From contig SWDT01000152.1 in assembly GCA_009193035.1 (NCBI GenBank), positions 1-64,000 on the forward strand: a stretch of DNA of 64,000 nucleotides, read 5' to 3'. Made by a program: the position numbers and the translations under genes. Numbering within the stretch: the stretch's first letter is position 1; every line of letters starts with the position of its first letter. The stretch is from Halicephalobus mephisto (Eukaryota; Nematoda; Chromadorea; Rhabditida; Panagrolaimidae). The notes below the pieces were generated by a model. That model made no database searches. It worked only from the letters and a program-made list of their open reading frames with translations, and was not told the DNA's origin. Positions 4,027-22,458 of the stretch are shown here, one piece after another.

Positions 4027-4425
4027 CTAATGACCCTTGTAAAACTGATGATTCCCAATTTTTCTCAAACGATTACAGTTCTGAGTCCAAGGTGGATAAC
4101 CTTCTTTATCTGGATTATTGTAGTGGTCTGCTCCACCAGTTGGATCATGACCATGAGGTGCATCGGAAATTTGATCAGTCAATTGACGAATACTGTTATA
4201 AACCTGATGCTCAAGGATTTGAATATCATTTCTGCCATTCCAGCATTCGAACTGACCAGGACACAAGCAAACATCTTTGATGGAACTGCCACCCCAATAT
4301 GATCTATTCATTTTAGCTCTGTTCTTGATCACCCAAGCAACCCATATCTGTCCTTCTCTAGGTTCACCTCTAGCCTCGGCATAGACGGTTTTTGCAAAAA
4401 CTTCTCTTTCATTGAGGTGAGCCAT
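4027..4425 (-). CDS. SleB/CwlJ-type cell wall hydrolase (Hydrolase_2), probable HGT
   Basis: The 132-residue protein is close to a complete Hydrolase_2 domain, the fold of bacterial spore-cortex and phage cell-wall hydrolases that cleave peptidoglycan. The catalytic-glutamate motif is YAEARGEP near residue 18, followed by GQIWVAWVIKNR. PGQFECW lies near residue 57, DPTGGADHY near residue 94, and the C-terminal signature IGNHQFYKG closes the domain. No signal peptide is visible in this exon. An AG acceptor sits just before the ATG (exon edge 4428), and a GTAAGT donor at 4608 downward implies a 5'UTR exon at about 4609-4690 and a 180-nt UTR intron, so the gene is wired for eukaryotic expression. 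It lies about 600 bp from a Polinton-like relic, so mobile-element cargo is possible. Animals have no native family of this type; horizontal origin is my inference. Confidence 0.82.
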   Translation of the reverse strand: MAHLNEREVFAKTVYAEARGEPREGQIWVAWVIKNRAKMNRSYWGGSSIKDVCLCPGQFECWNGRNDIQILEHQVYNSIRQLTDQISDAPHGHDPTGGADHYNNPDKEGYPPWTQNCNRLRKIGNHQFYKGH

Positions 4426-4720
4426 GACCTATAACAATTATTAATTAGTAAGTGCATTGCATGTATCTTTGAGAAATATTAATTTTAAAAATAAAAAGAA
4501 ATCAATATGATCAGTAATCACCTTTTACTTAAAAAATACCTAAAAATATTTTCAATCAACCTAAGTAATAGGATAAACTGAACTATAAACCTTAATACAA
4601 ATACTTACCAATTTAGCTTAGTTTATGATAGTGAATAATTGCCAATTAGTTTTGAACAACACTGACGATACTGAAGTGTTAACCAAGACTACTGGATGCT
4701 AATATTCTGCAATTACAATC

Positions 4721-13090: not shown

Positions 13091-15060
13091 ATAAAGGCAT
13101 GTAGGCCATTTTGACTTCTGTCATGGGCGGTCTTTGTCGCAGTCAGTTATCGACGTCAGAAGATCAGTGATGGTGTCGAAGTACGCCTGTCCTTTCTTCG
13201 TGACGTTTCAGATTCAGCAAGAAAACAGTACTGATGAGATCACGTGCACAATTCAAAAGAATGCATGATAAAAGAATGTCTACAGACATCTCTAATCTTT
13301 GGTTCATTAAATTATCCTAGACAATCAATCTTCTGACCTGCAGAGTCCAGAAAATAGCTGTGTGGAAGATGGCAAATGATAAATTTCCATTTAATCCCTT
13401 TTCTCAAAACAGATTTGGTTTAGTTACCCAGACTAATTGATCATCATAAAAACTGTTTAAACTTAAAAGCAGTAAACCGCAACCGTTAATTACGCAGAAG
13501 AGTAATTTTTCATGATTGATCATTGTCCAAACCTATGATCACTGGAAGTTATGGTTCGCCTGTGACGACAAATAAACACTTGGACAAAATGTACACATAT
13601 TTGATCTGTCATACCATCTATGCGTTTAGATTAGTTCCTATCATAACATACCAGAAATGAGAACTTATTAACCAAACTCAGGAAAACTTGAAAGTTGCTT
13701 CACAAATGAATCGAATTCTAAAAACCCTAAAATGTAATCTCAGTAAATAAAAAAGTATATATTGACTTAGTACTTCCTTGTCCGAATTTGTTTTTGTCTC
13801 TGTTATTATAACATGATTTATGATCTGCGACTCATTGATTGCGAAAAGAAATATATCAATATCGTCTGAAAGTCAGGGAAACAAAAGTTTGTTATTCAAG
13901 AAACTGGTCAATCTGCAATTGGAGAGAATATAAAAGACTTGATTGTCTATAGGAAATGAACCTAAAAGACCAACCACAAATTCTCAAAAAAGTTTTCAAT
14001 TCCATTAAATCTGTAAAAGATCTTCAGAACGAATGTGAGATCAGCGTCTTTATTTAAACTATTAATAGTGGTCATTAAAACTCTATCCCAAGATAATAAG
14101 AGATAATGAAGATTCCAAAAATTCCGTCTCTCCAAAGGAAAGATGAGCTTGTAAATTGCTGCTTTTTGTTGGATCTTGGAATTCAAAGTTCAGGGCAAAA
14201 ATAGAATGAGTTTAAAGTTATCTTTTGATAAGAAAAGTTCAATTGTGATGGCTTTAATGGATACAAAATATTAATAACAAGGTTTATGGGGAAAGTTTTG
14301 AAATTTCCTCAAACATTCTTTCAGTAGTGGTTAAGTGATGGCATAAATGGCTTTTCCCCAACTTTACAAGTTGAACTAGATTTTCTTACCTATTAAATTA
14401 ATTGCAGAGACTATGAGCATTTCTTCCAGAAGAAACTCTTTCCCTTTTTGAAGCGACACCAATAAAAAAACTCGTCTTGGAATAAAACAATATGATGATT
14501 CACGTCAGTGAATACACCGGAAAATGATTTAACAAAAATAAAATCCCTCCCGTATCTCAGTCCACAGATTCAATAAATTTTAATCCAAGACACAATATTA
14601 AGGCATCATAATTTAGAAGTTATTCAAGAATAGACATTAATATAACAATTCGAATGATTTAAAAACTCACCATAAAGTCTTAAAAGAGCCTACTTCGGAA
14701 AATTATTAATAGTCCAATGATTAATAAAATTTCTGAAATGACCAACATGAAAAAAATCATCATTGATAATTCCATTGAGATTTTGAAATAAAAAATAACA
14801 TGATGTCATTGTGTATTTTCTCTAAGGCTAATATTGAAAGTCATGTATTGATCTTTGTCACTTTAAATGCTAAAACAATTGTAGCTTTTTACGTACAATT
14901 CATGTTCAACTGAGTGTTATCTTATCATTTAAATATTTCATCAGAAACAAATACTTGGGGGAAATCATATACGAATGATATTTTATAATATCGAAAAAGC
15001 GGGATTGATTAACTAGTCTCCATCCGATATTACCTGAAAACTGTAAGCACAATATTGCAT
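13091..15060. other. 2-kb stretch without a recognisable gene
   Basis: It is AT-rich, with only short ORFs such as 13962-14186 on the minus strand, none of which resembles a known family or has convincing splice context. Confidence 0.4.
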
Positions 15061-15535
15061 AGTAGTATATAAATACTATTTCTGGTGCACTCACCCCACC
15101 CCTCAACCCGCTCAAAAAACACCACCTTTTACAGATTTTACCCAATTATTTAATAAAGTGAATTTAAAAATGACCCAAATTAAGCTTATTTTTCAATAGC
15201 ACACACCTCACCTACCTGTGCCAGAATCTATGCAACCCAAAAACCCACTATTTTTTATTCTAATTTTTCTATGAATAAATGGTGTAAACATTAGTGGACT
15301 TTTCAGTAAAAATTTCCCACTGACCAATACTATTTTTTTGTTAACTCTCTTTGATCCATTTTTGTTGCCTGATTGTCTTTGTTTTTCAACTGGATTCATA
15401 GTTTTTTAAATTTATGTTTGCTGGCCACTATAGTCTAATTTTAAAGCCTTGTTTTTTCTTGTTTGAAATCCGGCTAATGAATTTATGATTTGTTCCTAAC
15501 TATTCGGTTACTTAATTTTGTAATTTAGATAATCA

Positions 15536-16310
15536 ATGTATTTTAATGCTGTGCAACCTTCTTCGCTGTCTTCTTGCGCTTCGTCGACTGACTTTGAGAC
15601 TATTCAAGAACAGATTACTTTGATGCAGCTTGTGAATGAGATCGAGATGGCCACCGCTTCTCCTATTGTAACTGTAAGTTTAATTTAAGCTTCAAATAAA
15701 CTTATATCCCAATTTCAAATTACAGTTGACACCAGTCGTCGTCGTCTCTTGATTATTTATTGTCAAAATGCTCAACCGCCAGTAGTTGATCCGAATCTCA
15801 TGGTGGATGCTGCTGTAGCTCAGCGTGAAGCTCATTCCATCGCAAATGTTTAAGCTAGAACCGTTGCGAACTTGGCGATTGGGCGCCATCGAATCAGTCC
15901 GGAGAAAGCTGAACGTGTGAACAATACTATTTATTTCTATGTAAGCTTTTATATTCTTGCAACTAGTTTTTTACTGACGATGTTTTCATAGGCTTCGTGT
16001 GAAGACAATAAAAGCTACTCTGTAGCGGTAAATCTTGAAGTATATCTCGATACGAAATATTTTAAACAAATTTAGTGGCGTCCATGAGGAAACAACGACT
16101 GAAATATAGTGACGAATTTACCAAAGCTGTTATATTGTCTCGTTGATTGAAAATACAACTTTTCGTTTTATTTAAAGTAGGGTTGTAATTTGCCCGGGCA
16201 CTTCTCCGGTATTTACCAACACATCTCTGTATGGTCCAATAGGATTCATTATATCTTGGGAAGCTTTCTTAGAACAATATGTAAAAAACGGAGGATGCGA
16301 ATCGAATGAA
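15536..16310 (+). pseudogene. Decayed multi-exon gene inside the outer element
   Basis: An ATG at 15536 just after a splice acceptor opens a 46-codon exon (15536-15673). Later exon-like blocks are 15726-15940, 15992-16027, about 16077-16144 and 16190-16310. The second block carries a frame error relative to the first and an in-frame TAA (SIANV-stop-ARTV), so the gene is broken. The last block reads PGTSPVFTNTSLYGPIGF ... GGCESNE and is cut at 16310 by the insertion of the inner element; the frame resumes at 21236. No family is recognised. Confidence 0.45.
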
Positions 16311-16470
16311 AGTAGTATATAATAGGCTTATCTAAGACAACTCCAATTTTCACCCACCACCCGCCAAACCATTACTTCAATTTTAGAGCATAAATTAATA
16401 AAAAAGGCCTAAATTTAACAAATTATCATATAAAATTAATAGGACGATTTTAATTCCCCTCCAGAGCTGG
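16311..16470 (+). repeat. Left terminal inverted repeat of the mini-Maverick
   Basis: It begins AGTAGTATATAATAGGCTTA and ends CCAGAGCTGG. The reverse complement is found at 21070-21229 with a single C/T difference. Confidence 0.95.
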
Positions 16471-16576
16471 AACAACTCAGAAATCCTCACCACCCGCTAA
16501 TAAAAACATGTTATAAATTTTTAAAAATAGAAAATTGGGGATTTATATCAAACACCTTGTATAATAGAAAAAATCC

Positions 16577-16834
16577 TTAAATTAAATGAAGAATAATATC
16601 TTTATAATCATATTTTTCCATTAATTTTAATACCAACAAGCAATAATAACCACAATGATGTGTATTAAATTTTTGGATCTGAAATGTGGATATTTCAATA
16701 TCTTTATTTAAATATTTTATTAATTCAATAGGTGGATCTAGTCCAAATGAATCAAAATAATAACATTTTTTAGAATTAATGGAATAACATACCCAGTGAG
16801 TACCATTCTGTGGGAGCGGGCTCTGCAATCCCAT
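16577..16834 (-). pseudogene. Truncated Maverick adenain-like cysteine protease (PRO)
   Basis: The 85-codon frame keeps the His block (NGTHWVCYS), the Asp block (YYFDSFGLDPP) and the Cys block (HHCGYYCL) of the adenovirus-protease-like C5/C48-type fold that matures Maverick virions. The usual N-terminal part of 50 or more residues before the His block is missing. The frame starts next to a GC-rich inverted repeat at 16841-16868 that may mark a deletion junction. Catalytic residues are present, but the truncation makes activity unlikely. Confidence 0.8.
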
Positions 16835-16840
16835 CTCTCT

Positions 16841-16868
16841 TAGGTTCCCAGCCGGCCGCGGGAACCTA
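16841..16868. repeat. GC-rich hairpin at the truncated PRO end
   Basis: TAGGTTCCC at 16841-16849 is perfectly complementary to GGGAACCTA at 16860-16868, with the loop AGCCGGCCGC. The loop is strikingly GC-rich in an AT-rich element. Confidence 0.8.
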
Positions 16869-17649
16869 CAATTCTGAATGATCGAAATTAAGATTTCTTT
16901 TGAAAATCGCCATGTTTGGGGTTCATGGCTAGGTGGAATTATTTTCTGCTGAATGTATTCCGAAAGGAAATGGACGTAAAGTGTTCATCCCCATGTTATT
17001 CAGAGTTTATTCTTCTTTCATAAAGAAGTTTATCATATAATTAGTAATTATTCAAGTGTCAGTTAGCTGTTGATTTAATTATCATCTGCAAGACTAGCCA
17101 CGCCATTTATTTTTATAGTTACTGATTCTGAAAAGTTAAGATTTCCTTTGGAAATGAGCGTAAACTAAAGGCGTTCATCCATATGGATCGTTGTGCGTTT
17201 GGGTTCACAACTAAGTAGAAATTTATTCTACTGAACGTACCCAATAAAGTAATTCTTTGAAAGTTAAGAATTCTTTATTCATTTTTATCTATATTATATT
17301 CATTATATTATATTTTCAAATCAAAATTTCATTTAAATTTGTCAGATATTTTATGTAATAAGCTTGTTTCTTTTATATTTATCAACAATTGATTATTATT
17401 AATTATTAAAACAATAAAAGATAAAAATATTATAATTAATAAATGAATTGTTTACAATTCAAAGCAAGCAGAAGAATTGATTCCCTCTAGCATTGGGCCC
17501 TTCAGGCTCATATTCTGTATGAAATGCAAAGAAAGAACAGAAACAAAAGATGATGAAGAAATAATAACTAAAAATAATCGGAAAATGTTGAAAAGTAAAT
17601 CTAAAAATAACATTTCTTCTAGAAGTTCAAATGGGAAAGCCTGGAATAG

Positions 17650-18793
17650 ATGAGACAATCACTTTTTGTTCGAACTAAAAATCAACCGTTACTACAAGAA
17701 GATGATAGAGAAGAATTCTATTCAAATGTTTGTTATGAACTGGAAGATAAGATTGAAAAACAAGAATTAAAAGGTTCAGGATGGTCATTTTTGAGGGCCA
17801 ATAATTTGCTAATGACACAAAATGTTTATAAGCAATTTAAAGGTGGATCTTATATACCGTTGCCAAAGTAGATTGGAATTAAAGAAAATACATAGAATCT
17901 TGACATTTAAGGAAAGTAATTGGATGGAAAAATATATAATGTTGAATGCAAATTTGAGAAAGAAAGCCAAAAACGATTTTGAAAAAGACTTCTTTAAACT
18001 AATGAACAATGCTGTATTCGGAAAAACAATGGAAAACATACGAAATAGAGTAGATATTCAATTAGTAACTGATGAAAATAAAGCTTTAAAATTAATTAGA
18101 AAACCAAACTTTAAAAATAGTATAATCATTCATGAGAATTTATTGAGTGTTGAAATGGAAAAGACAAGCTTAGAATTTAATAAACCAATATATGTAGGAT
18201 TCAGTATCTTGGATTTGAGCAAATATTTGATGTACGAGTTTCATTATGATGTGATGTTGAAGAAGTACGACGGAGCGGCAGACTCTGTTTATGAAGACAA
18301 ATTAAAACTATGTTATCAAGACACTGACAGTTTGATATATGAAATTGAAACTGAAGATATTTACAAAGATATGAGTCAAATGAAAGAATGGTTTGACTTC
18401 AGTGATTATCCAAAACATCATCCATTATATGATGAATCGAATAAGAAAGTAATTGGAAAGTTCAAAGATGAGTTGAATAGAAAGATTATGGAAGAAGGGC
18501 TATTTTTAAAGCCAAAACAATATGCGTTCAGTGTTGATGGTGAAGAGAAAAAGAAATCAAAAGGAGTTAAGAAGAATGTAACTAAAACATTGAAATTGCA
18601 AGACTTTAAACGATGTCTCATTGAAGGAAAAGTTATTCGAAAAGAGCAATTCATAATTCAAGCTAAAAAGCATTAGATTTATACTCTAAAGCAAAATAAA
18701 GTTGCATTGAATGAAGATGAAAAAGAAGAATTTAAAAGATACATTTGTAACGATAAAATTAACACATTGGCTCATGGACACTGTAAGATTTAA
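17650..18793 (+). pseudogene. Broken Maverick protein-primed DNA polymerase B
   Basis: An N-terminal piece (17650-17871, frame 1) carries the GSGWSF ... GGSYIPLP block found upstream of the exonuclease region in Maverick pPolB. The next piece (17822-18676, frame 2) starts abruptly at the palm, with FFKLMNNAVFGKTMEN (motif B) and LCYQDTDSLIYE (motif C, the DTDS aspartates). The exonuclease, motif A and TPR regions between them are deleted, with a frameshift at the join. A TAG at 18674-18676 interrupts the thumb, and the same frame continues to the family-typical TLAHGHCKI end at 18793. About 360 of some 1,000 residues survive. It cannot be a working polymerase. Confidence 0.9.
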
Positions 18794-19039
18794 TCAACTT
18801 TATATTAAGCAATAATAGATGATTTCTTCACAGCAAAAAATATTTGTCGCTAGGCAAAATTATTTATACGCATTCAAATTTGCGCGCTTTTTCGACTTTT
18901 TGGCATTATGTGCTTGTTTTCTTCGTTTGCATTTTTTGCAGTGCGTACTGCTTGCTTCTTGGTTTTGTTTCGTATTCATGTTTAATTTAATTTTTGATTT
19001 AGAGATTTATAGAAAGATAAAACGCTTACTTTTCAGACA

Positions 19040-20348
19040 ATGGCCAAAATTATTGACCGTGAAGATGGTAGGAGCCTAATTATTCCTGTTGATCAGGATA
19101 GATTCTTGTCTTATCCTGTTTTAAAACAATACTTCACTGGAGCACTCGGGCTTGTATACAAATTAGAAAATGAAGAAGTAGCGATTTTGTATTAATTCTT
19201 ATAGCTTTTATATTCACACAATAAATTTCAGGTTCGACGAATCTATGATGAAGTTAGTTCCACCTGCAAATGGATGGGATCGCAAGGAGTTTTACGTGGT
19301 TCGGGCCAGTTCTCGACCACCGAGTCGTGTTGATATTGAAGGTTCCGCAGCGAGCAGAACCAGTTTTCCAGAAATCGACGGTAGAGGTATTTGAAACATT
19401 TTTTGTTAATTTCTTTATTTGACAAAATAACTTAAAATCTGAAATAACTTCAAATAATTATTGATTTACAGATATCCTTCCCACTGTCGACCGTTGTCGG
19501 AAGTTTATGTTATTTTCTCTAATTACGGAAGTCTCTGCCGGCGTATTCGAAGATGGATCAATTAGAAGTTGTGTAACAGTGGTGTCTTCTCGATTCGCTT
19601 TCATGGCTGGGCATTGTTTGCCAAAGGGTTATCCTATGGGCAAAATATTTAAGGTAGGATAGTAGTTCTTTTTAACATTGAATACATAAAATTTTAGGTT
19701 TATGACTCTAGCGGCAATAGTTATAATGTGAAGCTTGTTCTATTGGAAAGATATGAAGAAAGCGGCGATGATTTTGCAATTGTAGAGATTCAGAATGGGG
19801 AATTTCCCTTCTTCCCGTTAGTTATCAAATCTCCTGAACAAGGCAATCCGTATTTCATTCTCGTAGGTATTTTATTTGATATTTAAATTAGATTATTCTG
19901 TGATTATATCATCTTTTTAGGGTTATGATGGTGAATACCCGGATGCCGATCTGAGCTACTTCAAAGGAACAGTGCGAAACGTCAATATGTACGTGTCAAA
20001 AAACTACATCATAGGTTCTCCGGGTACGACAAGCGGCTGCAGCGGCGGCGGAGTCTTTAGCATGAATGGGGATCTCTACGGAATATGTGTTTCGGGCCGT
20101 CTCGTCACTGGTAGTAATTTGGCAACTCTCGATTTCCATTTCCAAACGCTACGACTAAAGCTGGGCGAACCGTCATATTCTCACATTGTTCCAGGACATT
20201 ACCTTGTTGCTCGTATTCCAAATCGTAAAAGAAAATGCGAAGTATGTATTGTTTTTAAAGCATCCTTATATAAAAATTATTTCAGGAAATTGATACATCC
20301 GATTCATCAGACAATTCTATGGACGCAGCAAAAAATAAAAAGAACTAG
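19040..20348 (+). CDS. Trypsin-like serine protease, Maverick cargo
   Basis: Six exons join in phase without stops: 19040-19188, 19232-19386, 19472-19653, 19698-19862, 19921-20241 and 20286-20348. They give 344 residues. The catalytic triad is visible: His in FMAGHCLPKG, Asp in SGDDFAIVEI and Ser in TTSGCSGGGVF, a variant of GDSGGP. There is no signal peptide, and the N-terminal 110 residues and charged C-terminus (RKRKCE ... KNKKN) lie outside the protease fold. An AG acceptor four bases before the ATG suggests trans-splicing or a 5'UTR intron. Intact frame and introns next to ruined Maverick genes suggest it is the unit under selection. As I recall, worm Mavericks carry a nematode-specific serine protease family (wosp) implicated in horizontal transfer; whether this is a member needs a search. 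Confidence 0.85.
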
Positions 20349-20365
20349 AGAAGTAATTTGCAATT

Positions 20366-20380
20366 AAGTTATTTCTTTGT
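20366..20380 (+). repeat. SINE target-site duplication, left copy
   Basis: AAGTTATTTCTTTGT is repeated exactly at 20700-20714, flanking the SINE. It lies 18 nt after the protease stop codon. Confidence 0.93.
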
Positions 20381-20699
20381 CCTCGGATACTACAATGGTA
20401 GTACACGTGAATTTAAATTCACGAGACCCGGGTTCGATTCCCGACCGAAGACCGGCAGCTAGAAGCCTAGCCCGCAAGCTACTTGTAGGCTAAAGAAGCG
20501 AAGCCCTCTGCATATCTCTCATTAGAGGCCCGGTTGACCAGAAAACAAGCTAGATGATAAGAAGAATCCCAAGATCGTAGGAACAGAAGGCTCGCACGCA
20601 CCGACGGATGAGTTGGATCAAAGGTACAAGGAGTTTAACTTTAGTATTGTGAACTTTGAATGTGCGATATGGGAATAAATAGAAAAAAATAGAATAGAA
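20381..20699 (+). mobile_element. tRNA-derived SINE in the protease 3'UTR
   Basis: The 319-bp insertion is flanked by a perfect 15-bp direct repeat. The head resembles a tRNA: acceptor halves TCCTCGG and CCGAAGA, a D-arm-like TACTACAATGGTAGTA (A box), and the T-arm GGGTTCGATTCCC (B box). Where the anticodon arm should be is the perfect palindrome CGTGAATTTAAATTCACG, giving an even-sized loop, so it is not a functional tRNA. An unrelated GC-rich body of about 190 bp follows, then an A-rich tail (AATAGAAAAAAATAG). Retroposition by a partner LINE is the known route for such elements. Confidence 0.88.
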
Positions 20700-21069
20700 A
20701 AGTTATTTCTTTGTTGTTGTTGAACCATTGCTAGTCTGTGCTATCACGTCGGCTATCCCAACAAATACCTCTTAAAGCTTTGCTAAGTTGTAGTATGAAA
20801 TTAATTAAATAAAATTTTTAATTTTATAGAATTTGTTATACATAATTTTTAATTGAATTTAAAAGAATGATGCTATGGATCATATTTTTATGCCTATTTA
20901 TTGCAATCTAGACTTGGCGGTGGGCTCGAGAAATGTTTTAGACATAAGTGGAGTGAATAGTTTTATGAATTTTTCTGGTATTGTTGATAAATAATATAAT
21001 TTTCAAAATCAATTTCTACTTTATTTACTGAACTGTGTTGTCATCGGCTTGTGGGGTACCTCGGGTGTC

Positions 21070-21229
21070 CCAGCTCTGGAGGGAAATTAAAATCGTCCTA
21101 TTAATTTTATATGATAATTTGTTAAATTTAGGCCTTTTTTATTAATTTATGCTCTAAAATTGAAGTAATGGTTTGGCGGGTGGTGGGTGAAAATTGGAGT
21201 TGTCTTAGATAAGCCTATTATATACTACT
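21070..21229 (-). repeat. Right terminal inverted repeat of the mini-Maverick
   Basis: It reads outward as the reverse complement of 16311-16470 with one mismatch, and ends TATATACTACT before the AATGAA duplication at 21230-21235. Confidence 0.95.
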
Positions 21230-21235
21230 AATGAA

Positions 21236-22039
21236 GTAAAGTTACGAAAGTTTGGAACTAAAAGATACACAATTAAAGGACATAAAGATAAAATTATGTA
21301 TCATATTCTCGTATGTGTCAAAAAGTAGGTTATAATTATTGAATTATTGTTAGGTTATTTAATATTAAGAATTGATTTTTAGCAATAAAATTTTCCCTAA
21401 ATTCGATGAAACTGTTTGTGACACCTATGGTGAGAAATAGAATAAAATGCTCATAAACCAACTTCGTGAGAGTGATGGAACAGATATTTTCGAAAATACT
21501 CACGAAGTTGACAAAGCCCTTATGGACGAAGCTCATGGAAAACCTAAGAAAATTCGTAAAATAGGTTCTGAAGAGACTCGTACAATCAGACCCGAGCCCC
21601 ATAAGGATTATGATTGGAAACTGGATAGTACTGTTAATTTTTCCAAAAACTTCTTAAATGATAGAATGGGCATGGGACCAGTTATATTTTGCATTATACT
21701 TTCCAAAGCAAAATGATATTTTAAAAATATCACCAAAATACTTCAGAATCAAAACAAAGGACTCAACTCTTTGACACTCGCAGTCAAACGAAAAAAGAGA
21801 GCAAGTCTGATGAAAACTTAATAAAAAGATTAGAAGAGAAAATAAACAGTAACAAAATGTTCAACGAAAATGAAAATTCGGATGATGATACCTCCAAGAA
21901 ATCTCCACAAATAGACACAAATTCTATCAATGAACTTCTTCAAAATCTAGACATAAATGAAGACAACCGCGAACATGAGAGAGGGTTTTTTGTTTATTCA
22001 CCTGATCTCAATGCAAAAAATAAGTTACACTGTAACTAA
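21236..22039 (+). pseudogene. Right-hand coding debris of the outer element
   Basis: The frame interrupted at 16310 resumes here (VKLRKFGTKRYTIKGHKDKI ... CVKK-stop at about 21330). A second frame, 21447-21716, starts MLINQLRESDGTDIF and includes KDYDWKLDSTVNFS. After a frame change, a third acid- and serine-rich frame runs from about 21734 to 22039 (ENLIKRLEEKINSNKM ... NSINELLQNLDI). I recognise none of them. Confidence 0.4.
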
Positions 22040-22458
22040 CAGCATACTACATAATTGATTTCATTTGGAAGAGTATCCCTCATGAATACTCCTCTACAAA
22101 TCTAGCTAAAGAATTAAAAATTAAGAATTTTGATGTCGTAAGTTGTTAATGATTTTAATTTTTTAATCAACATTTATATCAAGAAAAATTGTGGAATAAC
22201 TGGATTCAAGTGATAAGAAAATAATTTTATTTTTGTTAAATATCTATACTAGTAGATCGTGTAAATATTGGAGTGGGGAAGTCGGTGTGCTAGAAATAGT
22301 ATTTATATAATACTATAGTCTATTCCCTACTACTTTAATTAGACTAGTATATTCATCATGGATCTGAAAAACCGGAAACTTCTGAGGTTTTCTGAAATCG
22401 CAGCAGTTTTTTGGAACAAAAATAGTACAAATTACAAGTTATTTTGTGCGGAACCTTT

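What the first reader, a model, noticed from the sequence alone, without database searches (positions are those of the whole stretch)
16311..21229. A compact Maverick (Polinton) derivative that has lost its own machinery but kept a host-type serine protease gene
The ends are unusually clear: 160-bp TIRs with one mismatch, AG/CT termini and a perfect 6-bp duplication AATGAA. Inside, the Maverick protease is truncated and the polymerase gutted, while a six-exon trypsin-like gene is intact. This looks like a non-autonomous virus-like transposon whose remaining payload is the protease. Near-identical TIRs imply recent mobility, or formation by recent deletion. From recall, Mavericks in worms are vectors of horizontal transfer and carry such proteases, so this may be a minimal transfer unit.
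Basis: partly seen in the sequence, partly recalled or inferred. Interest (0 to 1): 0.92.

Follow-up and report, generated by a model that had tools for sequence, protein, structure and literature searches.

The report
Compact virus-like transposon carrying a protease
This is a short, non-autonomous descendant of a virus-like transposon (Maverick/Polinton) in what looks like a nematode genome; it carries an intact protease gene fused to a piece resembling the disease protein TDP-43, and sister copies carry other cargo genes.

Summary
Confirmed: a 4,919-bp element at 16311-21229 with 164-bp terminal repeats (2 mismatches) and a perfect AATGAA target-site duplication. It belongs to a family: a pattern of its ends hits 30 genomic places against 0 for the control; 12 elements (1.8-5.1 kb) have paired ends, and 6 of 11 inspected have perfect 6-bp duplications. 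It holds a truncated adenovirus-type protease, a deleted polymerase B and no detected integrase. The six-exon protease gene is intact (344 aa, His-Asp-Ser) but no ordinary host trypsin: a TDP-43-type N-terminal domain is fused to a Trypsin_2 domain. Eight of 10 loci found with that domain lie at Maverick ends; one of the other two looks like the host's TDP-43. Copies sharing a 93-98% identical left "chassis" carry different right-hand cargo (protease or a second family). Two copies have reciprocally swapped duplications, as recombination (or misassembly) would give. The element sits inside an older Maverick relic. Nematode Mavericks with "wosp protease" cargo are already reported, so this is a new variant of a known kind. 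Horizontal transfer could not be tested. Low Ka/Ks of the protease does not prove present function: the broken polymerase fragment is equally low.

The parts
16305..16310 (.). left target-site duplication AATGAA
   Evidence: sequence; flank comparison
16311..16474 (+). left terminal inverted repeat, begins AGTAGTATATAATAGGC
   Evidence: inverted repeat, 164 nt, 2 mismatches; terminal pattern found 30 times in the genome, 0 in control
16577..16984 (-). truncated adenovirus-type cysteine protease (PRO) open frame; C-terminal part homologous to longer Maverick copies
   Evidence: Peptidase_C5 E=3e-4, just under cut-off; tblastn/blastn to other copies
16985..17679 (+). spacer shared by the compact subfamily (part of the left 'chassis')
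   Evidence: 6 genomic places at 92-100%, this one included, for query 16985-17815; pairwise 95.8-98.4% among 6 copies
17680..17870 (+). remaining N-terminal piece of polymerase B (identified by eye; motif recalled)
   Evidence: sequence; the same frame read in the C55b copy
17871..18676 (+). remaining C-terminal piece of polymerase B, ending in a stop earlier than in another copy
   Evidence: ORF; 73 genomic matches, a lower bound; alignments to longer copies start at 17871; longer frame in C55b
19040..20348 (+). intact cargo gene: TDP-43-type N-terminal domain (aa 4-73) fused to Trypsin_2 protease (aa 148-273 of a 345-aa model), 344 aa; exons 19040-19188, 19232-19386, 19472-19653, 19698-19862, 19921-20241, 20286-20345 plus stop
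   Evidence: Pfam PF18694 E=9e-9 and PF13365 E=1.6e-7, both over cut-off; spliced alignment; no internal stop, GT-AG introns, AGHC/GDDFA/GCSGGGV motifs
20380..20699 (+). tRNA-derived SINE with 14-bp duplication AAGTTATTTCTTTG at 20366-20379 and 20700-20713
   Evidence: ARAGORN, Rfam tRNA 28.2 bits against a cut-off of 29, duplication
21066..21229 (-). right terminal inverted repeat
21230..21235 (.). right target-site duplication AATGAA
15061..22314 (.). older, decayed Maverick relic of a second TIR family in which the compact element is nested; fragment like the PRO region of other copies at 22043-22191; no clear target duplication
   Evidence: second-family terminal pattern: 17 places, 0 in control, both ends of this relic among them; fragment matches; terminal inverted repeat 15059-15083 / 22292-22316 and flanks

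Best explanation
A non-autonomous Maverick/Polinton derivative from a multi-copy family. Shown: TIR- and TSD-bounded insertions; a shared left chassis (TIR, truncated PRO, spacer, polymerase N-piece); an intact right-hand cargo gene here; different cargo in sister copies; and signs that the modules recombine. Inferred: it moves only when a fuller Maverick supplies integrase and polymerase in trans, and homology kept in the chassis and the polymerase C-piece lets copies exchange cargo. The cargo protein is an assembly-domain/protease chimera: the TDP-43-type domain would make it self-assemble or join TDP-43 assemblies (that this domain oligomerises in TDP-43 is recalled), and the trypsin-like domain would cleave local targets. 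It most likely benefits the element rather than the host (probability about 0.6 for that last step).
For: TIR/TSD; 30 termini against 0 in control, the 11 pairs I formed from them all at most 5.13 kb; 6 of 11 inspected elements with perfect and different TSDs; shared chassis; no rve integrase match on the window's contig among 12 in the genome, while contigs elsewhere combine an integrase and polymerase B. TDP-43_N + Trypsin_2; 8 of 10 TDP-43_N loci at Maverick ends. Cargo exchange: C55b and C17a have reciprocally swapped TSDs, and C55b_L = C17a_R at 100% of 167, C55b_R and C17a_L 98.5% of 342, while the two arms within each element are only 81-86% alike. C129 has the chassis but a polymerase C-piece grouping with C69/C314a/C314b (support 0.992). 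Domain chimera: similarity to the C146 protease starts at 19453, inside intron 2, while the first exons resemble C168, C193a, C244 and, in part, C312.
Against: Mobility now, expression and protease activity are untested. Protease Ka/Ks of 0.15 cannot be credited to the compact element, because the broken polymerase fragment shows 0.10-0.17. No helper with these exact TIRs was seen. 5 of 11 inspected elements lack a perfect TSD. C55b_R matches C17b_L slightly better (99.4% of 341) than C17a_L, so on that side only the TSD singles out C17a. The reciprocal swap could be a misassembly. The window protein itself has no PDB match to TDP-43 at E up to 10; the domain call rests on Pfam and on the C312 copy.
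Confidence: 0.8

Rival explanations
1. Dead relic: the element moved in the past, the protease is merely not yet decayed, and the family has no present function. (Overlaps with the best explanation on structure; differs on function now.)
For: The broken polymerase fragment has Ka/Ks as low as the protease, so the constraint may all predate compaction; PRO and polymerase are broken; the TIR arms differ at only 2 of 164 sites, so there has been little time to decay.
Against: An intact six-exon frame; open protease segments in several other copies.
Confidence: 0.35
2. Domesticated host gene: the host uses the protease, and the TIRs are scars of its arrival.
For: Intact gene with host-style introns.
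Against: Relatives sit in separate TIR-bounded elements, several with different perfect TSDs, and cargo differs between copies with the same chassis. Other Trypsin_2 loci exist away from known Maverick hits (C159, five at C233, C252) but were not examined.
Confidence: 0.08
3. Assembly artefact: TIRs or cargo joined wrongly at repeats.
For: C55b/C17a show reciprocally swapped duplications, which a misjoin in the similar chassis could produce; C146, C168 and C244 copies lie at contig ends.
Against: For the window element the two TIRs match each other best and the TSD is perfect; six elements have perfect, different TSDs.
Confidence: 0.03

Closest known systems
Maverick/Polinton virus-like transposons
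   Same: Long TIRs with AG/CT ends, 6-bp TSD, polymerase B and adenovirus-type protease remnants; a fuller relative in the same genome combines polymerase B with an rve integrase followed by a chromodomain-like tail (C258; chromodomain judged by eye)
   Different: 4.9 kb instead of the usual 15-20 kb (recalled); no integrase found, no capsid or ATPase frame seen; only truncated PRO and polymerase
Nematode Mavericks with wosp protease and krma kinase cargo (Widen and colleagues; seen only as passages of the meeting report PMC10680173)
   Same: Maverick elements in an apparent nematode carrying protease cargo, and a second cargo family
   Different: Here compact non-autonomous elements, and a cargo protease with a TDP-43-type N-terminal domain.
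TDP-43 N-terminal domain (PF18694)
   Same: Pfam cut-off met; the C312 copy matches TDP-43 chains of the PDB, best E=8.5e-5; phase-2 first intron within one residue of an intron in the apparent host TDP-43
   Different: Fused to a protease; no RNA-binding domain
Gene-carrying non-autonomous transposons such as Pack-MULEs (recalled)
   Same: TIR-bounded elements carrying spliced genes
   Different: Virus-like chassis with polymerase/PRO remnants, and recurring cargo families rather than random host fragments

Membership tests
Maverick/Polinton | long TIRs with AG...CT termini | tested here: met
   164 nt, 2 mismatches
Maverick/Polinton | 6-bp target-site duplication | tested here: met
   AATGAA; 6 of 11 inspected family members perfect
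Maverick/Polinton | protein-primed polymerase B | tested here: inconclusive
   only fragments, no Pfam hit alone, related to long frames elsewhere
Maverick/Polinton | adenovirus-type protease | tested here: inconclusive
   truncated; Peptidase_C5 21.0 bits against a cut-off of 21.3
Maverick/Polinton | retroviral-type integrase | tested here: not met
   no rve match on contig C88 among 12 in the genome; so filed as a non-autonomous derivative, not as a Maverick proper
Maverick/Polinton | capsid proteins and packaging ATPase | tested here: inconclusive
   no further frame of 110 aa or more inside the element beyond PRO, polymerase and a protease exon; no capsid or ATPase profile was run
wosp protease cargo family | sequence similarity to the published wosp proteins | not testable with these tools
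   no sequence or full paper reachable
TDP-43_N domain | Pfam gathering score | tested here: met
   35.5 bits against a cut-off of 27.1; but no PDB match of the window protein itself to TDP-43
Trypsin_2 / chymotrypsin-type protease | Pfam score and His-Asp-Ser | tested here: met
   32.6 bits against a cut-off of 27.6; motifs AGHC, GDDFA, GCSGGGV; His and Asp columns invariant among the 7 aligned copies, Ser column not

The most novel reading that the evidence does not exclude
Virus-like transposons took the self-assembly domain of the host's TDP-43, a protein reported to restrain retrotransposons in flies, and fused it to a protease, so that the product enters TDP-43 assemblies and cleaves there: a transposon-borne counter-defence or poison, spread by compact elements that swap such cargo by recombination.
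Probability: 0.12. Interest if true: 0.9.

Novelty: new variant of a known kind. Interest (0 to 1): 0.62.

Why it matters
Nematode Mavericks are reported vectors of horizontal gene transfer (PMC10680173), and how cargo gets on board is, as far as I know, open. Here one genome shows a small chassis with interchangeable cargo, one apparent reciprocal exchange with the duplications of both sites still readable, and a cargo protein that joins a TDP-43-type assembly domain to a protease. That makes both cargo exchange and the link to TDP-43 directly testable.

Tried and rejected
Single recent deletion as origin: rejected, because the same core occurs at several sites. Plain host trypsin: rejected. 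Chance inverted repeat: rejected. Reading Ka/Ks as proof of present function: rejected, because the broken polymerase fragment gives the same signal. Kinase identity of the second cargo family: suspected by eye and from the meeting report, not supported (Pfam; PDB profile, best E 0.014, ubiquitin-like region only). Exogenous viral relatives: polymerase fragment, 7 pattern matches in viral contigs, none confirmed. NCBIfam: nothing for 3 proteins. PDB by sequence, whole window protease: best E 0.023, no TDP-43. An SL1 RNA search gave 47 matches over the full model but all below the cut-off (best 49 bits, cut-off 75; 50 of 27,945 candidates scored), taken as a hint of a nematode, not proof. C79 element not fetched. 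No structure prediction was run, because the spliced protein is not contiguous DNA.
Full report
OBSERVATION. The window is contig C88 of a 59.9-Mb, 331-contig assembly. The inverted repeat 16311-16474 / 21066-21229 is 164 nt with two mismatches and is flanked on both sides by AATGAA. In 20 simulations with the window's dinucleotide make-up the longest exact inverted repeat was 16-20 nt. The element is real as described.

A FAMILY, NOT A SINGLETON. The terminal pattern, with up to 3 mismatches, matches 30 places (17 forward, 13 reverse) and 0 in the reversed control. I paired 22 of these by hand into 11 inward-facing pairs, 1.75-5.13 kb; 8 stayed single. Of the 11 inspected elements (C79 was not fetched), 6 have perfect, mutually different 6-bp duplications (C88, C304, C55a, C314a, C314b, C212) and 5 do not (C17b, C93 and C312 3 of 6; C55b and C17a 0 of 6). 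The query 16985-17815 has 6 places at 92-100%, this one included. So the compact form has been inserted repeatedly; it is not one recent deletion.

WHAT IS BROKEN. PRO is cut at its N-terminal side. The polymerase consists of a short N-terminal piece (by eye) and a C-terminal piece meeting at 17871, where alignments to longer copies begin, and ends in a stop earlier than the frame read in C55b. No integrase match lies on C88 (12 in the genome), and no other frame of 110 aa or more lies inside the element beyond PRO, polymerase and a protease exon. Fuller Mavericks exist: integrase and polymerase matches share contigs C258, C264 and, weakly, C38. Their ends were not shown to match the compact family.

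THE CARGO. The gene has six exons and five GT-AG introns, 344 aa, no internal stop. Pfam finds TDP-43_N (E 9e-9) and Trypsin_2 (E 1.6e-7), both over the cut-off. Against this, a PDB sequence search with the whole window protein found no TDP-43 chain at E up to 10; the C312 copy of the domain does (best 8.5e-5). I count 10 loci with the domain: 8 from the Pfam search and C88 and C168 from the protein search. Eight are at Maverick ends: C88, C304 and C312 inside paired TIRs, and C193a, C193b, C244, C168 and C237 with the ATG 417-473 bp from a related TIR. The other two are C123, with an RRM as in TDP-43, and C174, with long downstream frames that look coiled-coil (by eye). Of the eight, the protease part is over the Pfam cut-off in C88 and C168 and below it in C304, supported in C312 by tblastn only (no Trypsin_2 hit), and seen by eye in C193a and C193b (no Trypsin_2 hit for C193b, a weak one at E 0.6); C244 is cut by a contig end and in C237 I saw none. 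The phase-2 first intron is shared by C88, C304, C312, C168 and C193a and lies within one residue of a phase-2 intron in C123 (alignment, which has a gap there); the C193b model differs, and the C123 model contains a doubtful tiny exon. This suggests, without proving it, descent from a host TDP-43-type gene. A genome-wide Trypsin_2 search gave 12 matches; C159, five at C233 and C252 have no Maverick tie that I know of and were not examined.

MODULES. Six copies share the chassis (PRO, spacer, polymerase N-piece; 93-98% identical, except that C17a lacks the N-piece match) but carry different right halves. C88 and C304 both have TDP-43_N/protease cargo, yet only 23% alike in the protease part and 41% in the domain. 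Of the 12 paired elements: protease-type cargo in C88, C304, C312, C55b and C212; a second family in C17b, C17a, C93 and C55a (C17a weak); none seen in C314a and C314b; C79 not examined. Protease-type cargo also lies beside single TIRs in C129, C146 and C181. Synonymous divergence in the polymerase C-piece (Ks 0.29-0.49) is roughly ten times the 3-4% spacer difference. In a tree of 19 of 20 C-pieces (C312 dropped as too short; 20 loci chosen from those held), C129 groups with C69, C314a and C314b (support 0.992), which do not appear among the spacer matches. C55b and C17a carry each other's duplications; C55b_L equals C17a_R over 167 nt and C55b_R is 98.5% like C17a_L over 342, though 99.4% like C17b_L. 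This is the pattern of a reciprocal crossover in the chassis, unless misassembled; C17b, with a mismatched duplication, may be a recombinant too. Within the window gene, similarity to C146 starts at 19453, inside intron 2, while the first exons resemble C168, C193a, C244 and partly C312: a domain swap.

SELECTION. Protease exons 3-6, C88 against C146: Ka/Ks 0.153 (bootstrap 95% 0.10-0.23), Ks 0.94. The broken polymerase fragment gives 0.10 (C88-C129) and 0.15-0.17 (C88-C304), PRO 0.27 and 0.48. The signal is therefore inherited at least in part and does not show present function.

NESTING. The element lies in an older relic of a second TIR family, 15061-22314 (17 pattern hits, 0 in control), with no clear duplication at its ends, and itself holds a tRNA-derived SINE.

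LITERATURE. Passages of PMC10680173 report that nematode Mavericks code for a putative fusogen and that wosp proteases and krma kinases became cargo and moved between species. It was the only held paper with at least two of 'wosp', 'krma' and 'Maverick'. A five-term search for TDP-43, transposon, trypsin-like, N-terminal domain and nematode gave 0 papers; of 379 papers in a looser search 20 were listed, none with PF18694. The library is partial, so absence there is weak. That TDP-43 restrains retrotransposons in flies is taken from a title in the listing (PMC7334854); the paper was not opened.

VERDICT. A new variant of a known kind: compact, apparently recombining, cargo-bearing Maverick derivatives, here with a TDP-43-type domain/protease chimera. 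Counts from genome searches are lower bounds, as the tool states.

Noticed in passing
L067 (C55:1301550-1306380) and L070 (C17:491950-495900): Reciprocal swap of TSDs and TIR arms between two compact elements: ectopic recombination, which would also exchange chromosome arms, or a misassembly.
   Followed up: partly
15061-22314: Older Maverick relic enclosing the compact element.
   Followed up: partly
20366-20713: tRNA-derived SINE with 14-bp target duplication just after the protease stop.
   Followed up: partly
L027, L069, L070, L028: A second cargo family with a ubiquitin-like N-terminal region in some members; 100 matches reported genome-wide (90 of 130 candidates scored), several near Maverick polymerase fragments.
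   Followed up: partly
L068 (C212): Protease-type cargo whose catalytic serine position reads leucine in the alignment.
   Followed up: no
L038 (C174): Another TDP-43_N gene, the strongest Pfam match of the genome search (76 bits), with a coiled-coil-like tail by eye.
   Followed up: no
16892-16968: Sub-cut-off Rfam match to RAGATH-11 (34.4 bits against 79.4, E 0.0024), probably chance.
   Followed up: no
4027-4428: Cell-wall hydrolase (PF07486) frame in an apparent animal genome; origin not examined.
   Followed up: no
2428-2675: Repeat shared with several Maverick loci.
   Followed up: no
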